Assembly: GCF_006861825.1 (NCBI RefSeq)
Contig: NZ_VDGI01000001.1
Span: forward strand, 78,172-142,171
DNA length: 64,000 bases
Origin: Psychrobacillus vulpis
Lineage (GTDB): Bacteria > Bacillota > Bacilli > Bacillales_A > Planococcaceae
Reading direction: 5' to 3'
A program made the position numbers and the translations under genes. Below the pieces are notes generated by a model. That model saw only the letters and a program-made list of their open reading frames with translations. It did no database searches and was not told where the DNA came from. This document shows positions 33,792 to 64,000 of this stretch, in pieces; positions within the stretch are counted from its first letter, which is position 1; each line of letters begins with the position of its first letter.

Positions 33792-34721
33792 CTAGTCTCT
33801 TAAAGCTCTGCCTGTTAAATGTAAAAATACATCTTCAAGGGAAGGAATTTTCACAATTGCAGATGTGATGGTCACAGCATTATCAGCAGCTATCGCAAAA
33901 ATAGTCGCTAATGGCTCTTCCTTTTTAGGCATGGAGATTAATAGAATATCTTCTTCTTTACGAACGCTTGCCATCGGAAATTGCTTTTGTAGTGCTTCTT
34001 CGAAAGCGGAAGATAATAGATGTGCTTTTAATTCGATTGTTTGATTGTCTGAAACAAGTAATTTTAACTCCTCTTTTGTTCCGTAGGCGATAATTTCACC
34101 TTGATCCATAATATAAATTTTGTCACAAAGAAGCTCAACTTCTTCCATATAGTGACTTGTGTATAGCAATGTCATCCCTTCTTCGACGAGTTGTTTTACA
34201 GTATCTAAAATATAGGCTCTTGATTGTGGATCAATTCCTACTGTTGGTTCATCCATGATTAATATGGATGGTTTATGTAATAGAGCGGCTCCAATATTCA
34301 AACGGCGTTTCATCCCACCGGAGAATGTTTTCACAATATCATTTTTTCGATCTGACAGCCCAATCTTTAACAATATTTCTTCCGTCCGTTCTATTAATAA
34401 TCGACCTTTCAATCCATAGATGCGACCAAAAAAAGCTAAGTTTTCCTTAGCTGTTAACTCTGGATATAATGCAATTTCTTGTGGTACTATACCAAGTGTT
34501 TTACGAAGAGCTTCCGGATTTTTATTGATAGATACTTTGTTCCAAAAAACCTCTCCACTTGTGGGCATTACTAAGGAAGAAAGCATTGAAATAGTTGTTG
34601 ATTTTCCTGCGCCATTTGGTCCAAGCAAACCAACAGATTCTCCCTTTTCTAACTGCATATTAATATTACAAACTACTTCTTTTGTTTTAAACTTTTTCTG
34701 AAGATTGATTGCTTGTAGCAT
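33792..34721 (-). CDS. ABC exporter ATP-binding protein (LnrL-like)
   Basis: This 309-residue ATPase has Walker A GPNGAGKST (about 35-43), Q-loop GIVPQEIALYPELTA, signature SGGMKRRLNIG, Walker B ILIMDEPTVGID and switch TSHYMEEVE. The C-terminal 80 residues are a DUF4162-like tail common to drug and bacteriocin exporters. It is the first gene of the operon. A TATAAT box and a seven-base-arm palindrome lie just upstream. Confidence 0.92.
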   Translation of the reverse strand: MLQAINLQKKFKTKEVVCNINMQLEKGESVGLLGPNGAGKSTTISMLSSLVMPTSGEVFWNKVSINKNPEALRKTLGIVPQEIALYPELTAKENLAFFGRIYGLKGRLLIERTEEILLKIGLSDRKNDIVKTFSGGMKRRLNIGAALLHKPSILIMDEPTVGIDPQSRAYILDTVKQLVEEGMTLLYTSHYMEEVELLCDKIYIMDQGEIIAYGTKEELKLLVSDNQTIELKAHLLSSAFEEALQKQFPMASVRKEEDILLISMPKKEEPLATIFAIAADNAVTITSAIVKIPSLEDVFLHLTGRALRD

Positions 34722-34951: not shown

Positions 34952-35054
34952 TCATTTTGTATGCTTTGGACATTATGGCATAAGAACTCTAGAGTAAAAA
35001 GCGCTAGACTCCTCGGAAAAACGGAACGTCCAAAACCACTTACGACCGTAGCGA

Positions 35055-35530
35055 AAGTACTGATAAGTCTCTATTATTCGACTTTGCCAAATGGATTGTC
35101 CAATAGTCCAATAAATAAGAAAATCGTTGAAACGGCTCCCTTTCCGAAGGGCACTGAAAAAGTGTTATTCTAATAAATTCCATTAAATAGTCGTTAAGAG
35201 AGTTTATCGCTTTGGCATTCGCTTTCCGCGGGCGAGCAACGAGCCTCCTCCTTCGCTCCGCTTCGTGCTGGGTCTCGTCTGTCTCGCTTTCCCGCAGGAG
35301 TCTCATGCGTCGCGCTAAATTCTCTTAAATAAATTCAGCAAATAGTTCCTACAAAATAATAATTCGAGTTTTTCAGTGCCCTCCCTTACCGCGGGCGTTG
35401 CCTTAGTCTCCTCGCTTCGCTGCGGGGCCTTCGACTAACGCTATTCCCGCAGGAGTGTCGCCTTTTCAACGATTTTCTAGAAATGAAAAAGTATTTACTT
35501 AGAAAATAGACAGTATTTCAGTGCCTACAA
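35055..35530. mobile_element. Family B MITE-like element, copy 1 (itself interrupted)
   Basis: The element is flanked by the 8-base direct repeat CGTAGCGA (35047-35054 and 35531-35538). Ends are AGTACTGATAAG and TATTTCAGTGCC, imperfect inverted repeats. Inner arms GAAAATCGTTGAAA and TTCAACGATTTTC surround the GC-rich core. A second element (35147-35382) is inserted in its left core. It carries no transposase. Confidence 0.72.
35147..35382. mobile_element. Family D MITE-like element nested in family B
   Basis: Perfect 13-base terminal inverted repeats GGGCACTGAAAAA (35149-35161) and TTTTTCAGTGCCC (35369-35381) enclose about 235 bases with its own GC core (CTTTCCGCGGGC ... CCCGCAGGAGTC). The host text is duplicated at the edges: CCCTTTCCG before (35138-35146) and CCCTTACCG after (35383-35391). 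The uninterrupted sequence is seen at 35775. Confidence 0.75.
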
Positions 35531-35708
35531 CGTAGCGACGAGAAGACTTGGAATTTCGCCCGCGGAAGGCGAGTAGCTTTTTCCGGACTCAATTAGTCTT
35601 AATTCTATTTTATTAGAATAGAGACTGAACTAATCGCGCACATTTTGGATGTATTTGAACATATCGAGTAGCAATTCTAGAGGAAAAAGCTGCGAGACTC
35701 CTTCGGAA

Positions 35709-35922
35709 AAACGGAGCATTTTGCCAAATGAGGTAGTCTAATATTCCAGTAAATAAGAAAATCGTTGAAATGGCTCCCTTTCCGCGGGCGTTGCCTCAGT
35801 CTCCTTGCTTTGCCGCGGGGCCTTCGACTAACGCTATTCCCGCAGGAGTGTCGCCTTCTTCAACGATTTTCTAGAAATGAAAAAGTATTTACTTAGAAAA
35901 TAGACAGTTTTTCAGCGCCTAC
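35709..35922. mobile_element. Family B MITE-like element, copy 2 (left end truncated)
   Basis: It shares AATAAGAAAATCGTTGAAA, the GC core and GATTTTCTAGAAATGAAAAA with the other B copies, and ends in TTTTTCAGCGCC. The terminal GGTACTG of the left end is missing. It interrupts the second family C unit at the same place as copy 1. Confidence 0.68.
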
Positions 35923-36211
35923 AACATAGCAACGAGGAAGCATGGAATTTTGCCAAAGCGAGTGGCTTTTTCCAGACTCAATTAGTCTTAATTCTATTTT
36001 ATAAGAATAAAGACTGAACTAATCACACTCATTTTGGATGTATTTGAACATCTCGAATAGCAACTCTAGAGGAAAAAGCTGCGAGACTCCTGCGGAAAAA
36101 CGAAGCGTCCAAGACCCCGCACGAGCCTAGCGAGGAGGAGGCTTGGCGTTTCGTCCGCGGAAAGCGAGTGGCTTTTTCCGGACTCAATTGTCATCATTCT
36201 ATTTTATAAAA

Positions 36212-36256
36212 AAACTGTAGGCAAACTCTCGATTTTATCGAGTTTGCCTACAGTTT
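36212..36256 (-). terminator. Terminator of the cystine transporter gene
   Basis: A perfect 17-base stem AAACTGTAGGCAAACTC / GAGTTTGCCTACAGTTT is followed on the minus strand by TTTTTTTAT. A smaller hairpin (TGTCCT / AGGACA) lies between it and the stop codon. Confidence 0.85.
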
Positions 36257-36294
36257 GAAATGTCCTGTAAAGGACAGCTTTTTTATTTATATTA

Positions 36295-37686
36295 TTAAGC
36301 TTCTACTGTTTGTGTTTCAAGTGGAGCATTGTACATATCTTTGTCCAGTTCCCCTGTGATCTTTGCAGTAGCAACACCAGCAGTCATTGAACCACTTACA
36401 TTTACTGCTGTACGCCCCATATCGATTAATGGTTCAACTGAAACTAGTAAACCAGCTAAAGCTACTGGTAGATTTAAAGCTGAAAGTACTAGAATTGCGG
36501 CAAATGTTGCTCCACCACCAACTCCTGCAACTCCAAAAGAGCTAATCGCTACGATAGCAACGACAGTTAGGATAAACAATGGATCTAACGGATTGATACC
36601 TTGAGAAGGGGCAATCATAAACGCCAACATTGCAGGATATATACCAGCACATCCATTTTGTCCGATTGATAAACCAAACGAACCAGAGAAGTTTGCAATT
36701 CCTTCCGAAACGCCTAACTTGTTAGTTTGCGTATTAATATTAATAGGTAGAGTACCTGCGCTTGAACGAGACGTAAAAGCAAATAATAATGGCTCTGCCG
36801 CTTTTTTCACGTATGTGAAAGGGTTTAGCCCAGAAAGAGTAATGATTAATAAATGAATTGCGAACATAACTGCTAAAGCAACATATGATGCTAGAACAAA
36901 TTTCCCTAAGTTATAAATTGCTGCAAAATCGGATGTTGCTACAGTTCTTGCCATAATTGCTAAAATTCCGTATGGAGTTAGACGTAGAACAATTTTCACT
37001 ACGCTCATAATTAGCGCATAAATCGCGTCAATTCCTGTTTTAATCGTTGCTGCTACTTCTACATCTTTACGAGCAACTGCTAGATAAGCAAAACCTAAAA
37101 ATGCAGCAAAGATAACGACTGCTATCGTAGATGTTGAACGTGCTCCTGTGAAATCTAAAAATGGATTCGCAGGAAGCAAATCTAGTAATTGCTGTGGAAG
37201 TGTTTTATCCGCCACTTCCGCTGAACGTCCTTCGATATATTCTGCACGAGCCGATTCTGCATCTCCTTGAACAATTTGGTCAGAGTTCAAATCAAAAATT
37301 GCAGCTGAACCAATTCCTACAACTGCAGCAATCGCAGTTGTACCAATTAAAATACTTAATATAATTGCAGCCATCTTACCAAAATTTTTACCAATTTTTA
37401 ATTTCGTAAATGCTCCTAAAATAGAAATGAATACTAACGGCATTACGATCATTTGAAGAAGCTTCACATAACCAGAACCAATTAAGTTATACCACTCAAT
37501 CGATTCGTTTAAAACTTCCGAAGTTACGCCATAAATAAAATTTAACGCTAAACCTAAAACAATCCCTAATCCCAATGCTGTAAACACTCGTTTTGAGAAT
37601 GAAATATGTTTCTTTTGCATTATGATTAATACTCCAACGAACAACAATAATGCTGCAACATTGAGAATGATAAATAATATATCCAT
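36295..37686 (-). CDS. tcyP: L-cystine sodium symporter, TcyP type
   Basis: This is a 463-residue member of the dicarboxylate/amino acid:cation symporter family with about eight helices. Family motifs are MIVMPLVFISILGAF, a serine-rich re-entrant loop (FTSRSSAGTLPININTQ), NGCAGIYPAML and the last-helix VEPLIDMGRTAVNVSGSM. The overall sequence resembles B. subtilis TcyP (YhcL), a high-affinity cystine importer. It is divergent from the cardiolipin synthase gene. A TTGACC-17-TATCAT promoter is present. Confidence 0.9.
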   Translation of the reverse strand: MDILFIILNVAALLLFVGVLIIMQKKHISFSKRVFTALGLGIVLGLALNFIYGVTSEVLNESIEWYNLIGSGYVKLLQMIVMPLVFISILGAFTKLKIGKNFGKMAAIILSILIGTTAIAAVVGIGSAAIFDLNSDQIVQGDAESARAEYIEGRSAEVADKTLPQQLLDLLPANPFLDFTGARSTSTIAVVIFAAFLGFAYLAVARKDVEVAATIKTGIDAIYALIMSVVKIVLRLTPYGILAIMARTVATSDFAAIYNLGKFVLASYVALAVMFAIHLLIITLSGLNPFTYVKKAAEPLLFAFTSRSSAGTLPININTQTNKLGVSEGIANFSGSFGLSIGQNGCAGIYPAMLAFMIAPSQGINPLDPLFILTVVAIVAISSFGVAGVGGGATFAAILVLSALNLPVALAGLLVSVEPLIDMGRTAVNVSGSMTAGVATAKITGELDKDMYNAPLETQTVEA

Positions 37687-37716
37687 TTAAATACCCCCAT
37701 TTTTAATACTTTTCAT

Positions 37717-37745
37717 ATGATATTACTTTTATTCCTATAGGTCAA
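37717..37745 (-). promoter_or_regulatory. Sigma-A promoter of tcyP
   Basis: TTGACC (37740-37745) and TATCAT (37717-37722) are 17 bases apart on the minus strand. Confidence 0.6.
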
Positions 37746-37849
37746 GTAGGTTTTATTACTTTTACTTGTAAACACACGTATCTTCTTTATTTTCCTCAAA
37801 TCCGCTATACTAGAGATAAATCCCAATAGATACAATTGGAGGTGTCAAT

Positions 37850-39304
37850 TTGGCAGCGAGTTTATTAAGTTTAATGATTTCTGGCACTCTCATACTAAAT
37901 ATTTTCCTTGCAATCGCATTAATATTTTTAGAGCGTAGAGATGCTTCTTCTACATGGGCCTGGCTTCTGATCCTATTCTTTATACCAATTCTGGGGTTCG
38001 GTATTTATTTGCTATTTGGGAGAAAATTACGTAGAAAACACTTATTCCGGTGGGAAGGTAAAAATAAGATCGGGATTGATAAATTAATCGAATATCAAAT
38101 GGAAGCAATTGAAGATGATTCTTTCGATTTTCGTCTAGATGATGCAAGTCAATACAAAGAATTGATTATCATGCATCTACACAATAATCAGGCTGTGTTA
38201 ACACAAGATAATAAAGTGGACATTTTCAATGATGGGCGAGAAAAATTTGATGCACTTTTACATGATTTAGAATATGCGAAAGACCATATTCATATTCAAT
38301 ATTATATTTTTCGCCTAGATCATCTTGGACAGCAAATATATCAAATCCTTTTAGAAAAAGCGAAACAAGGTGTGAAAGTTCGTATTCTTTACGATGATAT
38401 GGGATCTCGTTCTTTAAGAAAAAGACATTTTAAAGAGCTTATTGAGCTAGGTGGACGTGTGGAAGCATTTTTCCCAGCAATTTTACCACTAATTAATCCA
38501 CGAATGAATTATCGGAATCACCGAAAAATTGTCGTCATTGATGGTCGTATAGGTTATATTGGGGGATTCAATGTAGGCGATGAATATTTAGGGTTAAATA
38601 AACGATTCGGGTATTGGCGGGATACACATTTACGTATTGAAGGAAGCGCAGTACATCCACTACAAACTCGATTTATACTAGATTGGAATCAGGCTTCTGT
38701 CGAGCACGACATTGAATATTCTGATCGCTTTTTCCCTGCAATTCCTTTAAAAGGTTCTGTTGGTCTACAAATTGTCTCTGGCGGACCTGAATCGGAATGG
38801 GAGCAAATAAAAAACGGATATTTAAAGTTAATAATGATGGCGAAGAAATACATTTATATTCAAACTCCTTACTTTATCCCAGATGCAAGTTTTATGGATA
38901 CTCTTCGCATTGCTTGTTTATCTGGAATTGATGTGCGCATAATGATTCCAAACAAGCCTGATCATATTTTTGTTTATTGGGCTACTTATTCTTATGTAGG
39001 CGAATTAATAAAAGCCGGGGCTAAAGTCTACATTTACGAAAATGGATTTTTGCATACGAAAATGATTGTGATTGATGATGAGGCATCTACGGTCGGCACT
39101 GCTAACATTGATATTCGCAGTTTTAAACTTAACTTTGAAGTAAATGCTTTTATCTATGATCGCGAAACTTCACATATACTAGCAGAACACTTCGAAAAAG
39201 ACATGCAACTATCAACTCAACTAACATGGGAATTATATGAGGAAAGAAGTCGAATGATTAAATTCAAAGAATCTTTAGCACGTCTCCTTTCACCAATTCT
39301 TTAA
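37850..39304 (+). CDS. cls: Cardiolipin synthase
   Basis: This 484-residue phospholipase-D-type synthase has two N-terminal transmembrane helices (about 3-25 and 34-55). Two HKD motifs follow: NHRKIVVIDGRIGYIGGFNVGDEY near residue 224 and HTKMIVIDDEASTVGTANID near 400. It joins two phosphatidylglycerol molecules into cardiolipin. GGAGGTG followed by TTG at 37850 is the start. The gene converges on the VanY-type gene, and a repeat element now splits the terminator between them. Confidence 0.95.
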   Translation: MAASLLSLMISGTLILNIFLAIALIFLERRDASSTWAWLLILFFIPILGFGIYLLFGRKLRRKHLFRWEGKNKIGIDKLIEYQMEAIEDDSFDFRLDDASQYKELIIMHLHNNQAVLTQDNKVDIFNDGREKFDALLHDLEYAKDHIHIQYYIFRLDHLGQQIYQILLEKAKQGVKVRILYDDMGSRSLRKRHFKELIELGGRVEAFFPAILPLINPRMNYRNHRKIVVIDGRIGYIGGFNVGDEYLGLNKRFGYWRDTHLRIEGSAVHPLQTRFILDWNQASVEHDIEYSDRFFPAIPLKGSVGLQIVSGGPESEWEQIKNGYLKLIMMAKKYIYIQTPYFIPDASFMDTLRIACLSGIDVRIMIPNKPDHIFVYWATYSYVGELIKAGAKVYIYENGFLHTKMIVIDDEASTVGTANIDIRSFKLNFEVNAFIYDRETSHILAEHFEKDMQLSTQLTWELYEERSRMIKFKESLARLLSPIL

Positions 39305-39331
39305 GAAAAGTCTAGACATTATATAACTAAA

Positions 39332-39362
39332 AAAGTCAGCTTTCATAATGAAAGCTGACTTT
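39332..39362 (+). terminator. Terminator of cls
   Basis: A perfect 15-base stem AAAGTCAGCTTTCAT / ATGAAAGCTGACTTT with a one-base loop. Its right arm is repeated at 39849-39863, on the far side of a repeat element. Confidence 0.8.
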
Positions 39363-39847
39363 AGACTGTAGGAAAACTCGATAAATTCGAGTTTGCCTAT
39401 AGTCTTTTTTCTTATAGAAGAGAAGGAAGGCTAATCGAGTCTGGAAAAAGCCACTCGCTTTCCGCGGACGAATCGCCAAGCATCCTCCTCGCTACGCTGA
39501 GGGTACTGAAAAAGTCCCTATAATCGACGTTGCTAGACGGAGTTGTATAATAACCCAACAGATAAGAAAATCGTTGAAACGGCTCCCTTTCCGCAGGCGT
39601 TGCCTTAGCCTCCTCGCTTCGCTGCGGGGTCTTCGGCTAAAGCTATTACTGCAGGAGTGTCGCCTTTTTCAACGATTTTCTAGAAATGAAAAAGTATTTA
39701 TCTAAAAAAAATAGACAGTTTTTTAGTGACCATGCTCTACGCTCGTGCAGGGTCTTGGACACTCCGTTTTTCCGCAGGTTCTCGTTGCTATGTCCTCTAC
39801 GTGTTGAATCTAGGAGTTGATATGCGATGATGTCCAAAAACATACAA
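39363..39847. repeat. Composite repeat (family C, inverted, carrying a family B insertion)
   Basis: This non-coding element lies inside the cls/vanY terminator. It starts with the hairpin AGACTGTAGG...CCTATAGTCTTTTTT. It contains a C module in the opposite orientation to those at 34952-36200 (GGAAAAAGCCACTCGCTTTC and, after the insertion, GGGTCTTGGAC). The 16-base direct repeat AATGAAAGCTGACTTT flanks it (39347-39362 and 39848-39863). Confidence 0.8.
39499..39736. mobile_element. Family B MITE-like element, copy 4 (most complete)
   Basis: About 238 bases with ends GGTACTGAAAAAG (39502) and TTTTTTAGTGACC (to 39731), flanked by CTACGCT on both sides (39492-39498 and 39737-39743). Arms GAAAATCGTTGAAA and TTCAACGATTTTC are complete. 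Relative to its host module C it is inverted compared with copies 1 and 2. Confidence 0.75.
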
Positions 39848-39863
39848 AATGAAAGCTGACTTT

Positions 39864-40706
39864 TTACATTTCAAAATATTCTTCTAGTGTAGTTCCTGCT
39901 TTATACACTTCCGTTGCTAGCTGCTCTCCAACATAGCGGAAATGCCAAGGTTCATACATGTAACCTGTTATTTTCTCTTTTCCATTTGGATAACGCATAA
40001 TGAATCCGTATTTATGTGCGTTTGCAGCAACCCATTTTCCAGCTTCCGTCTCCCCAAAGCTTTCTCTTGCGAAATGTTGCTCAAAATGCTGCTCTCCAAT
40101 ATCAAATGCAAGACCAGTTTGATGCTCTGAATATCCTGGACGAGCACTGTAGCGATCTGCTTCTTCTTGACCATCATTGCTGACATACTTATTGTACAAT
40201 TGCGTTTGGTAATCAAAAGAGCGATATGTACTAAAAGCAACTAGATTATAACCGGAAAGCTTTGCTTCTGCTGCCATTTCTTCATATGCTGCTCGTGCTT
40301 CTTTACTTTCACCAGGTGCGTAAGTAGAAGGGAGCGGGTACGTTTTACTCGCTATCAGAACTCCTTCAACATATTTAGGCTCTTCTGGTAATGTTTCATG
40401 ACCAACATATCCCTTTGCACCAGACAAATCTATTTCAGGTTCTTCGACAACCGGTTCTTCTTCAGCAGCTGGCTGTTCTTTTTCATCATTTTCTTCCATT
40501 GCAGGCTCGTCTACCTTTTCCTCAGTAGTAGGTTTTCCCTTATCATTTGAAAGTCCTAATGCTGCAATACTTTTATCTATATTCCAATCATTTAACCCAA
40601 TCCAAGTAACAATTAATGCTATTATTGCAGCTGCTATACACCCTGAAACGATATATGGCCACTTCTTTTGATTTTTCTTTTTTAAAAAACTCTGTCTTGA
40701 TTGCAT
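39864..40706 (-). CDS. D-alanyl-D-alanine carboxypeptidase, VanY/LdcB family
   Basis: This membrane-anchored peptidase has 280 residues. It has a basic N terminus, one transmembrane helix (about 20-42), a Pro/Glu-rich linker (EEKVDEPAMEENDEKEQPAA) and a C-terminal VanY domain. The zinc and catalytic motifs are RPGYSEHQTGLAFDIG and EPWHFRYVG. It trims D-Ala or L,D bonds of peptidoglycan stems outside the membrane. The ATG at 40706 follows AAGGAAG. Its native terminator was apparently disrupted by the adjoining repeat. Confidence 0.9.
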   Translation of the reverse strand: MQSRQSFLKKKNQKKWPYIVSGCIAAAIIALIVTWIGLNDWNIDKSIAALGLSNDKGKPTTEEKVDEPAMEENDEKEQPAAEEEPVVEEPEIDLSGAKGYVGHETLPEEPKYVEGVLIASKTYPLPSTYAPGESKEARAAYEEMAAEAKLSGYNLVAFSTYRSFDYQTQLYNKYVSNDGQEEADRYSARPGYSEHQTGLAFDIGEQHFEQHFARESFGETEAGKWVAANAHKYGFIMRYPNGKEKITGYMYEPWHFRYVGEQLATEVYKAGTTLEEYFEM

Positions 40707-40826
40707 GGTCTTCCTTCTTTCCAATAACGATACTTAATAGTTTAACATTTTTTCATGATAAATTCCGCAAAACTTAACCAATTCCATTATTATGTAATTT
40801 TGAAAATATAAGAAACTAAAGGTAAA

Positions 40827-63585: not shown

Positions 63586-64000
63586 CAGACTGTAGACAAA
63601 TTCTTTTTACAATGAGTAGAGATGTATAAGAGAATCAGCAGGGCCCGCCACTTCGCTTTCCGCGGGCTTGGCTTCAGCCTCCTCGTCACTGCAAAGACAC
63701 TGGCCAAATAAAGTTCGGCCAGTGTCTTTCCTGCGGGGTCTTCAGCTCAAGCTATTCCCACAGGAGTCTCCGTGGCGAGCCCTGCCTATCGAAAGTTGAA
63801 AGTGGAAAGTGTAAATCTGAAGATGCTGTGATCAATTAATATTCTCGGAATATCTGATAAAAATAACGGATTGACTATCCCGTATCATCAAGTGAAAAGG
63901 CTTTAATTGTCCACTTTTCTGTTTATTGAAGTTAAAAATAAGCGGAAGGCGGCGACTCCTGCGGGACAGCGAGACAGTCCAAGACCCCGCAGGCAAAGCC
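63586..64000. repeat. Composite GC-rich repeat, family A copy 2 (runs off the right edge)
   Basis: This is the reverse complement of 29280-29701 over its full visible length. It has the same end (AGACTGTAGACAAATTCTTT), the same first GC module (GGGCCCGCCACTTCGCTTTC), the same spacer (GTGAAAAGGCTTTAATTGTC) and the start of the second module. In the first module it carries a perfect 12-base hairpin (AAGACACTGGCC / GGCCAGTGTCTT, about 63697-63731) that copy 1 lacks. No gene is supported. Confidence 0.85.

What the first reader, a model, noticed from the sequence alone, without database searches (positions are those of the whole stretch)
35047..39743. MITE-like family B inserted at the same site of a host repeat in both orientations
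Copies at 35055-35530, 35709-35922 and 39499-39736 share arms, a GC-rich core and GGTACTGAAAAAG/TTTTTCAGTGCC-type ends. Copy 1 is flanked by CGTAGCGA twice and copy 4 by CTACGCT twice. Each interrupts the same place of module C. The host module is inverted in copy 4 while B keeps its orientation, so at least two independent insertions are needed. This argues for a mobile, site-preferring, non-autonomous element family.
Basis: seen in the sequence. Interest (0 to 1): 0.75.

Follow-up and report, generated by a model that had tools for sequence, protein, structure and literature searches.

The report
Hairpin-loop-targeting mini-transposons and their parent IS
The repeats are short, gene-less mobile elements that carry the ends of an IS1182-family insertion sequence and sit in GC-rich DNA hairpins, including hairpins inside each other, while the parent kind of insertion sequence often sits in the loop of a terminator-like hairpin and duplicates 8-10 bases there.

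Summary
Observation confirmed; interpretation supported and extended. B copies 1 and 4 are TIR-bounded elements in the apex of the same GC-rich hairpin repeat (module C, inverted at copy 4); copy 2 is left-truncated, probably a tandem duplicate of copy 1; copy 1 contains a second element, D. The genome (nearest named relatives: Psychrobacillus) holds 384 TIR matches against 5 for the reversed control. Of 93 paired elements in the fetched part, 37 have an exact 8-9 bp duplication (control 3.4%). E and D occupy one 8-mer of B in both orientations, which segmental duplication alone cannot give. The TIRs are those of an IS1182-family IS with an intact transposase gene in the genome. Of 73 IS copies, 64 have exact 8-10 bp duplications; in 33 of 60 nonredundant sites a strong hairpin is centred on it (control 2.0%). 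Hairpin targeting is published for IS1272 of this IS family, but with hairpin deletion and no duplication; loop duplication was only a hypothetical branch of that model. Mobilisation in trans and structure recognition are inferred. New variant of a known kind.

The parts
35053..35528 (+). Element B, copy 1, interrupted by element D; degenerate ends GAAAGTACTGATAAG ... TATTTCAGTGCCTAC
35045..35052 (+). left target duplication of copy 1, ACCGTAGC (in the apex of module C)
35529..35536 (+). right target duplication of copy 1, AACGTAGC (7 of 8)
35147..35383 (+). Element D (237 bp) nested in B copy 1; ends AAGGGCACTGAAAAAG ... GTTTTTCAGTGCCCTC
   Evidence: 57 matches in the genome, of which 43 rows (this copy included) cover most of it at 89-95% identity (only 40 of 302 candidate places were scored)
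35139..35146 (+). left target duplication of D, CCTTTCCG, at the edge of an internal loop of the B hairpin
35384..35391 (+). right target duplication of D, CCTTACCG (7 of 8)
35719..35922 (+). Element B, copy 2, left end missing; probably a tandem duplicate of copy 1
36074..36190 (+). Module C without insertion (empty site; apex GAGCCTAGCGAGG at 36123-36135)
35000..35052 (+). left half of the module C interrupted by copy 1 (outer limit approximate)
35529..35600 (+). right half of the module C interrupted by copy 1 (outer limit approximate)
39433..39498 (-). half of the inverted module C interrupted by copy 4; ends in CTACGCT (39492-39498)
39499..39733 (+). Element B, copy 4; ends GAGGGTACTGAAAAAG ... 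TTTTTTAGTGACCAT (right end degenerate)
39737..39778 (-). other half of the inverted module C, beginning with CTACGCT (39737-39743)

Best explanation
B, D and E are MITEs of an IS1182-family insertion sequence. Shown: ends shared with the IS, with its polarity (one end AAAAAG, the other AAAAAC), 8-9 bp target duplications, no long ORF, an intact transposase gene in the genome, recurrent targets in GC-rich hairpins, both orientations. Inferred: the IS1182 transposase mobilises them in trans; it prefers hairpins (extruded cruciforms or single-stranded stem-loops) and joins the two strands on opposite sides of the loop, so that the 8-10 nt loop is duplicated and the two arms end up on either side of the element. 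Because the MITEs, and some of the ISs, carry a large GC-rich hairpin, an insertion brings a new landing pad, which gives the nested clusters seen here; short internal repeats then amplify some of them in tandem.
For: TIR count 384 against 5. Of 93 elements 37 have an exact 8- or 9-bp duplication (control 3.4%) and 56 one with at most one mismatch over 8, 9 or 10 bp (control 5.3%). 78 of 93 have one IRL-type and one IRR-type end; longest closed ATG ORF 53 aa in the 81 elements of 150-245 bp. Transposase NF033551 367.3 bits, cut-off 270, behind the same TIR. Among elements with 7 or 8 of 8 bases duplicated: E in the B internal loop 6 same, 5 opposite; D there 7 and 2; D in the B apex 9 and 1. 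IS copies: exact duplications of 8, 9, 10 bp in 33, 27, 4 of 73; hairpin centred on it in 33 of 60 nonredundant sites, 2.0% with shuffled flanks. Of the 33, 30 have TTTT within 24 bases after or AAAA within 24 before (51% in shuffled flanks) and 19 have both (10% shuffled). Uninterrupted terminators at two such sites in relatives. Distinct gene pairs around MITEs: 29 convergent, 33 tandem, 3 divergent.
Against: 37 of 93 MITEs have no duplication even with one mismatch allowed, by decay, recombination or wrong pairing. 27 of 60 IS sites have no strong hairpin centred on the duplication; in 9 of these a strong hairpin lies elsewhere. The broader folding test is much weaker: 5 or more enclosing pairs in 46 of 59 sites against 41% and 45% of controls. 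The commonest MITE target (21 of the 46 sites read) is at the edge of an internal loop of the B hairpin, not at an apex. MITE targets are themselves repeats, so structure and sequence preference cannot be separated there. Five of 73 IS copies have no convincing duplication. No transposition was observed.
Confidence: 0.88

Rival explanations
1. The copies spread by segmental duplication and recombination only; the apparent target duplications are ancestral repeats of module C.
For: Copies 1 and 2 look like tandem duplicates; tandem arrays with steps of about 180-195 bp exist, e.g. G000:C9:64204-65116.
Against: The same 8-mer of B filled by E and D in both orientations; exact 8-9 bp duplications in 37 of 93 elements against 3.4% in control; the same ends and duplications on ISs at unrelated sites, two of which are uninterrupted in relatives.
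Confidence: 0.04
2. The transposase reads a short sequence motif rather than hairpin structure.
For: MITE targets share 8-mers; oriented by the transposase, IS sites show a C-rich left and a G-rich right arm, so some sequence or strand preference exists.
Against: Within the duplication no position of the 8-bp or 9-bp sets exceeds 0.45 bit, while hairpin axis and centre of the duplication coincide in 33 of 60 sites.
Confidence: 0.15
3. Insertion follows features of transcription termination (paused polymerase, RNA hairpin, supercoiling) rather than the DNA hairpin itself.
For: 30 of 33 centred hairpins have an A or T run as terminators do (51% shuffled); MITE loci avoid divergent gene pairs, 3 against 29 convergent.
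Against: MITE targets are GC-rich hairpins of unknown transcription; E inserts in both orientations relative to B about equally.
Confidence: 0.25
4. The repeats are REP/BIME-like palindromes moved by a RAYT (Y1 transposase).
For: GC-rich intergenic palindromes in high copy; one Y1_Tnp match in the genome.
Against: 8-9 bp target duplications and ends shared with a DDE-type IS; that Y1 elements leave no target duplication is recalled, not from a call.
Confidence: 0.02

Closest known systems
IS1272 / TnSha1 (IS1182 family, staphylococci), PMC5678879 and PMC4923244 (abstract, passages and one section seen)
   Same: Same transposase family; the targets are stem-loops without primary sequence consensus, several of them transcription terminators, in both orientations; duplication of the left-end sequence occurs (25 bp there; 193 bp in L115 here).
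   Different: IS1272 and TnSha1 delete part or all of the hairpin and make no target duplication (three older IS1272 copies had non-inverted-repeat targets); here the arms stay and the loop is duplicated (8-10 bp), an outcome that PMC5678879 draws only as hypothetical pathway c. The word MITE does not occur in PMC5678879.
REP-targeting ISs such as IS1397, ISKpn1, ISPpu9 (PMC1525189, passages seen)
   Same: An IS specific for a repeated intergenic palindrome.
   Different: Other IS families (IS3, IS110 and others named there); the word IS1182 does not occur in that text; the target is a host REP, not terminators in general nor a hairpin carried by the element itself.
Bacterial MITEs in general (recalled)
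   Same: Short, TIR-bounded, non-coding, high copy, with the ends of a resident IS.
   Different: B and D carry a large hairpin, and that of B is itself a recurrent target of D, E and B elements, giving nesting.

Membership tests
MITE of an IS1182-family IS | terminal inverted repeats shared with an autonomous IS of the genome | tested here: met
   the right end of the resident intact copy lies beyond its contig
MITE of an IS1182-family IS | target site duplication | tested here: met
   37 of 93 exact 8-9 bp, control 3.4%; 56 of 93 with at most one mismatch, control 5.3%; 37 of 93 without
MITE of an IS1182-family IS | no transposase gene, small size | tested here: met
   81 of 93 are 150-245 bp, longest closed ATG ORF 53 aa; the 12 longer ones were not tested for ORFs
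MITE of an IS1182-family IS | mobilisation in trans by the IS transposase | not testable with these tools
   needs an experiment
IS1182 family (the parent IS) | transposase above the family cut-off | tested here: met
   NF033551 367.3 bits, cut-off 270; PF05598, PF01609, PF13751 over cut-off
IS1182 family (the parent IS) | both ends of one intact copy in this genome | tested here: inconclusive
   the intact ORF runs to a contig end; a partial copy, 98% identical, with a right end is on another contig
IS1272-type stem-loop replacement | no target duplication, hairpin deleted | tested here: not met
   64 of 73 IS copies have exact 8-10 bp duplications
IS1272-type stem-loop targeting | target is an inverted repeat without sequence consensus | tested here: met
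   33 of 60 nonredundant sites with a strong centred hairpin, 27 of 60 not; at most 0.45 bit per position inside the duplication
REP/BIME with RAYT | no target duplication, Y1 transposase | tested here: not met
   duplications present; one Y1_Tnp match in the genome, whose surroundings were not examined

The most novel reading that the evidence does not exclude
A branch of the IS1182 family integrates by recognising an extruded DNA stem-loop and joining its ends on the two flanks of the loop, so that the loop itself is the duplicated target (8-10 nt). Its MITEs have turned this into self-propagating target supply: they carry hairpins that are landing sites of the same system, and the large GC-rich hairpin families in intergenic regions of Psychrobacillus and other genera of its family belong to it (the D core is 98.8% identical over 84 bp to the leader hairpin of an IS in another genus).
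Probability: 0.5. Interest if true: 0.75.

Novelty: new variant of a known kind. Interest (0 to 1): 0.6.

Why it matters
It gives a large natural data set (64 exact duplications, 33 centred hairpins) for an open question, how structure-targeting DDE transposases choose and cut hairpins, and shows an outcome, loop duplication, that was drawn as a possibility beside the stem-loop replacement of IS1272. It also offers a mechanism for how nested GC-rich intergenic hairpins build up, and predicts that terminators are hot spots for such elements.

Tried and rejected
Rfam gave only weak S. aureus tsr24 matches on the minus strand and one weak sR33 match, below the gathering scores; not used. Expected-pairs folding gave a weaker contrast than the axis test and is reported as such. 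A contiguous-stem score in a fixed window (32 of 65 against 3.6% and 4.4%) misses imperfect stems and was replaced by a whole-site search. My first duplication count used a fixed 8-base register (46 of 93 with 7 or 8 of 8, control 4.5%); it missed exact 9-bp duplications and was replaced. Terminator-like A/T runs first had no control; the shuffled rate, 51%, was added. The gene-context count (28/31/3 of 62) could count a gene pair twice and was redone per distinct pair. The idea that the B core is a separate mobile hairpin was checked in other species; several copies keep the left TIR, so it was not adopted, but not excluded. Leader lengths counted are unreliable (the start-codon pattern matched too early in some) and are not used. 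The orthologous gaps of nine Psychrobacillus relatives show no blastn piece of module C or B (some loci are cut by contig ends), but are too diverged for a base-exact empty site, so two unique IS sites were used for that. A RAYT origin was set aside. Structure prediction was not run.
Full report
1. What is in the window. Three B copies lie in two intergenic blocks: 35053-35528 and 35719-35922, between an SDF-type symporter gene (36295-37686, minus) and an ABC transporter ATPase gene (33792-34721, minus), and 39499-39733 between convergent PLD (37850-39304, plus) and VanY-type genes (39864-40724, minus). Module C, the host repeat, folds as a large GC-rich hairpin; it is direct in the first block and inverted in the second, while B keeps its direction. 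An uninterrupted module C stands at about 36074-36190. Copy 1 shows ACCGTAGC/AACGTAGC and copy 4 CTACGCT/CTACGCT at the junctions. Copy 2 lacks the left end and shares with copy 1 the right end CCTAC and 91% identical surroundings, so it is probably a tandem duplicate. Copy 1 is split by element D (35147-35383) with CCTTTCCG/CCTTACCG. The simplest history has three insertions: B in copy 1, B in copy 4, D in copy 1.

2. Genome scale. The window is G000:C1:78172-142171 of a 4.02-Mb draft in 76 contigs. B gives 93 matches at E <= 1e-3 and D 57; both searches scored only 40 of their candidate places (243 and 302), so these are lower bounds. The TIR GGGCACTGAAAAA with up to one mismatch occurs 384 times (188 + 196), its reversed control 5 times. 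In 61 relatives 23 genomes have a B match, many of them the GC-rich core only. From the fetched loci (around copies, not a census) I paired TIRs with no other TIR between them and removed duplicates: 93 elements, 12 of 160-169 bp, 64 of 220-249 bp, 17 of other sizes up to 1148 bp. Best match by family: D 53, B 27, E 12, one unassigned. 37 of 93 have an exact duplication at the ends (31 of 8 bp, 6 of 9 bp; 3.4% in shuffled pairs) and 56 of 93 one with at most one mismatch over 8, 9 or 10 bp (5.3%); the shuffled rates are raised by the recurrent targets. In the fixed 8-base register 46 of 93 reach 7 of 8: 8 of 27 B, 27 of 53 D, 11 of 12 E.

3. Targets of the MITEs. Reading the 46 sites listed: 21 are CCTTTCCG or its complement or a close variant, at the edge of an internal loop of the B hairpin; 12 are the apex of the B hairpin (CTCGCTTC type); 10 are the apex of module C or another GC-rich hairpin; one (L072) is half of such a hairpin; 2 (L077, L097) are none of these. 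Relative orientation by match to the consensus (duplications of 7-8 of 8 only): E in the B internal loop 6 same and 5 opposite, D there 7 and 2, D in the B apex 9 and 1, B in B one and one.

4. The parent IS. PF05598 hits in this genome (7 places) lie behind or beside the same TIR. One ORF of 492 aa is intact (L065:1500-2978) and is an IS1182-family transposase (NF033551, 367.3 bits, cut-off 270). Its contig ends 6 bases after the stop codon; a partial copy, 98% identical, with a right end lies on another contig, and both contig ends lie in the B internal-loop target. The other matches in this genome are partial. Relatives G010, G011, G013 and G023 carry ISs with both ends GAGGGCACTGAAAAAG / GTTTTTCAGTGCCCTC or close variants; one G013 copy (L129) sits in a GC-rich hairpin of the module C kind with AGCGTAGC (complement GCTACGCT) duplicated, the target seen in the window. 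The MITEs keep the polarity of the IS ends: 78 of 93 have one AAAAAG and one AAAAAC end, and the B left arm matches an IS left end over 39 columns at 87% (L254).

5. How the IS inserts. Of 250 genomes of the family, 42 have the transposase at E <= 1e-120, in 12 of 19 genera. I examined 76 loci: 11 of the 30 (those with a near-complete transposase in Psychrobacillus-genus or family genomes), the 25 new ones, and 40 that I picked from the remaining matches listed, mostly extra copies in multi-copy genomes, before seeing their flanks. 73 had both ends; dropped were L111 (contig end), L112 (contig edge) and L253 (no TIR found). Exact duplications directly at the ends: 8 bp 33, 9 bp 27, 10 bp 4, 7 bp 1, 6 bp 1, none 7; of the nine below 8 bp, L123, L247, L265, L277 and L279 reach 7 or 8 of 8 with a shift or mismatch and L114, L134, L245 and L246 do not. 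Of 60 nonredundant sites, 42 have a hairpin of score 8 or more somewhere in the joined site and in 33 its axis lies within 2.5 bases of the centre of the duplication; with shuffled flanks the joint rate is 2.0%. At score 12 or more it is 21 of 22, and none of 300 shuffled controls reached that score. Of the 33, 30 have TTTT within 24 bases after or AAAA within 24 bases before the duplication, 51% in shuffled flanks; 19 have both, 10% in shuffled flanks. The broader folding measure agrees but is much weaker: 46 of 59 against 41% and 45%. No position inside the 8- or 9-bp duplications exceeds 0.45 bit, but oriented by the transposase the left arm is C-rich and the right arm G-rich, a sign of orientation preference. 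At two sites an uninterrupted terminator is seen in relatives: 12 of 32 genomes of one genus give a single match across the junction (5 aligned) and 3 of 68 of another (2 aligned). The other genomes gave split, partial or no matches and were not examined, and the loops differ between species, so these show the hairpin without the IS but not a base-exact empty site.

6. The hairpin cargo. Most of the IS leaders that I read (the output was cut) have a strong hairpin behind the left end, usually with a T run; L297 is an exception. ISs fall mainly into lengths of 1.65-1.70 kb and 1.85-1.89 kb, and several of the longer ones also hold a GC-rich hairpin in the leader. In G193 (L255, L277-L280) this is 98.8% identical over 84 bp to the D core, 81% to module C and 75% to the B core. 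So the hairpins of MITEs, module C and IS leaders are related or exchange sequence; which gave rise to which is not settled.

7. Gene context. Of the 93 elements, both neighbouring ORFs could be called mechanically for 77 (16 not); they lie between 65 distinct gene pairs: 33 tandem, 29 convergent, 3 divergent. Of 75 loci checked with one element each, none had it inside an ORF over 150 aa. Convergent and divergent gaps alternate along a chromosome, so equal numbers are expected; the skew fits insertion at gene ends.

8. Literature. I saw the abstract, passages and section 22 of PMC5678879 and passages of PMC4923244 and PMC1525189; all other papers only as search listings with the start of their abstracts. 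IS1272 and TnSha1 target stem-loops, several of them terminators, delete them wholly or in part and leave no duplication; PMC5678879 draws duplication of the loop as pathway c of its model and cites a review (not read) that some IS1182 members target palindromes. Searches of the held open-access library for IS1182 with hairpin, MITE, palindromic or target duplication, for terminators as IS targets, and for Bacillus MITEs with hairpins listed nothing whose title or abstract start describes loop duplication or IS1182 MITEs; the full texts of those listings were not read.

9. Verdict. An ordinary kind of object (MITEs and their IS) with an unusual integration outcome and an unusual self-nesting ecology. 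Mobilisation in trans and recognition of a hairpin as such remain inferred.

Noticed in passing
39335-39359 and 39849-39864: A terminator-like hairpin GTCAGCTTTCATAATGAAAGCTGAC stands at one side of the second block and its 3' half (ATGAAAGCTGACTTTT) again at the other side, as if the whole module C block had entered a terminator and duplicated one arm.
   Followed up: partly
   Followed up: no
63731-63770: A 40-base stretch 85% identical to the B core, far from the other copies.
   Followed up: no
G000:C9:64204-65116, C12:66347-67622, C13:33-1499, C44:77905-78890: Clusters and tandem arrays of B, in C9 with steps of about 180-195 bp; the step is about the distance between the left TIR and an internal ATGAAAAAGT, suggesting slippage at that short repeat.
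   Followed up: partly
L115:1174-1500: The IS in G023 has a 193-bp tandem duplication of its left end together with the target flank, recalling the larger IRL-duplicated IS1272 form in PMC5678879.
   Followed up: partly
L169, gap after the PLD gene: Psychrobacillus insolitus has a different GC-rich hairpin in the gap orthologous to window 39304-39864, so such hairpins seem to enter the same gap independently.
   Followed up: no
L115 tail and L164 gap: Repeats bounded by GAGGCTGGGACA ... TGTCCCAGCCTC, in one case inside the IS tail: another inverted-repeat family in the same niche.
   Followed up: no
window 35380-35460, 35762-35897, 39567-39713, minus strand: Sub-threshold Rfam matches of the B cores to S. 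aureus tsr24 (best E 0.00013, 32.7 bits, gathering 50).
   Followed up: no
G003 (same genus): Twelve B-core matches listed (12 of 113 candidates scored), several with the same left TIR, but no transposase match at E <= 1e-20: the family may have lost its parent IS there.
   Followed up: partly
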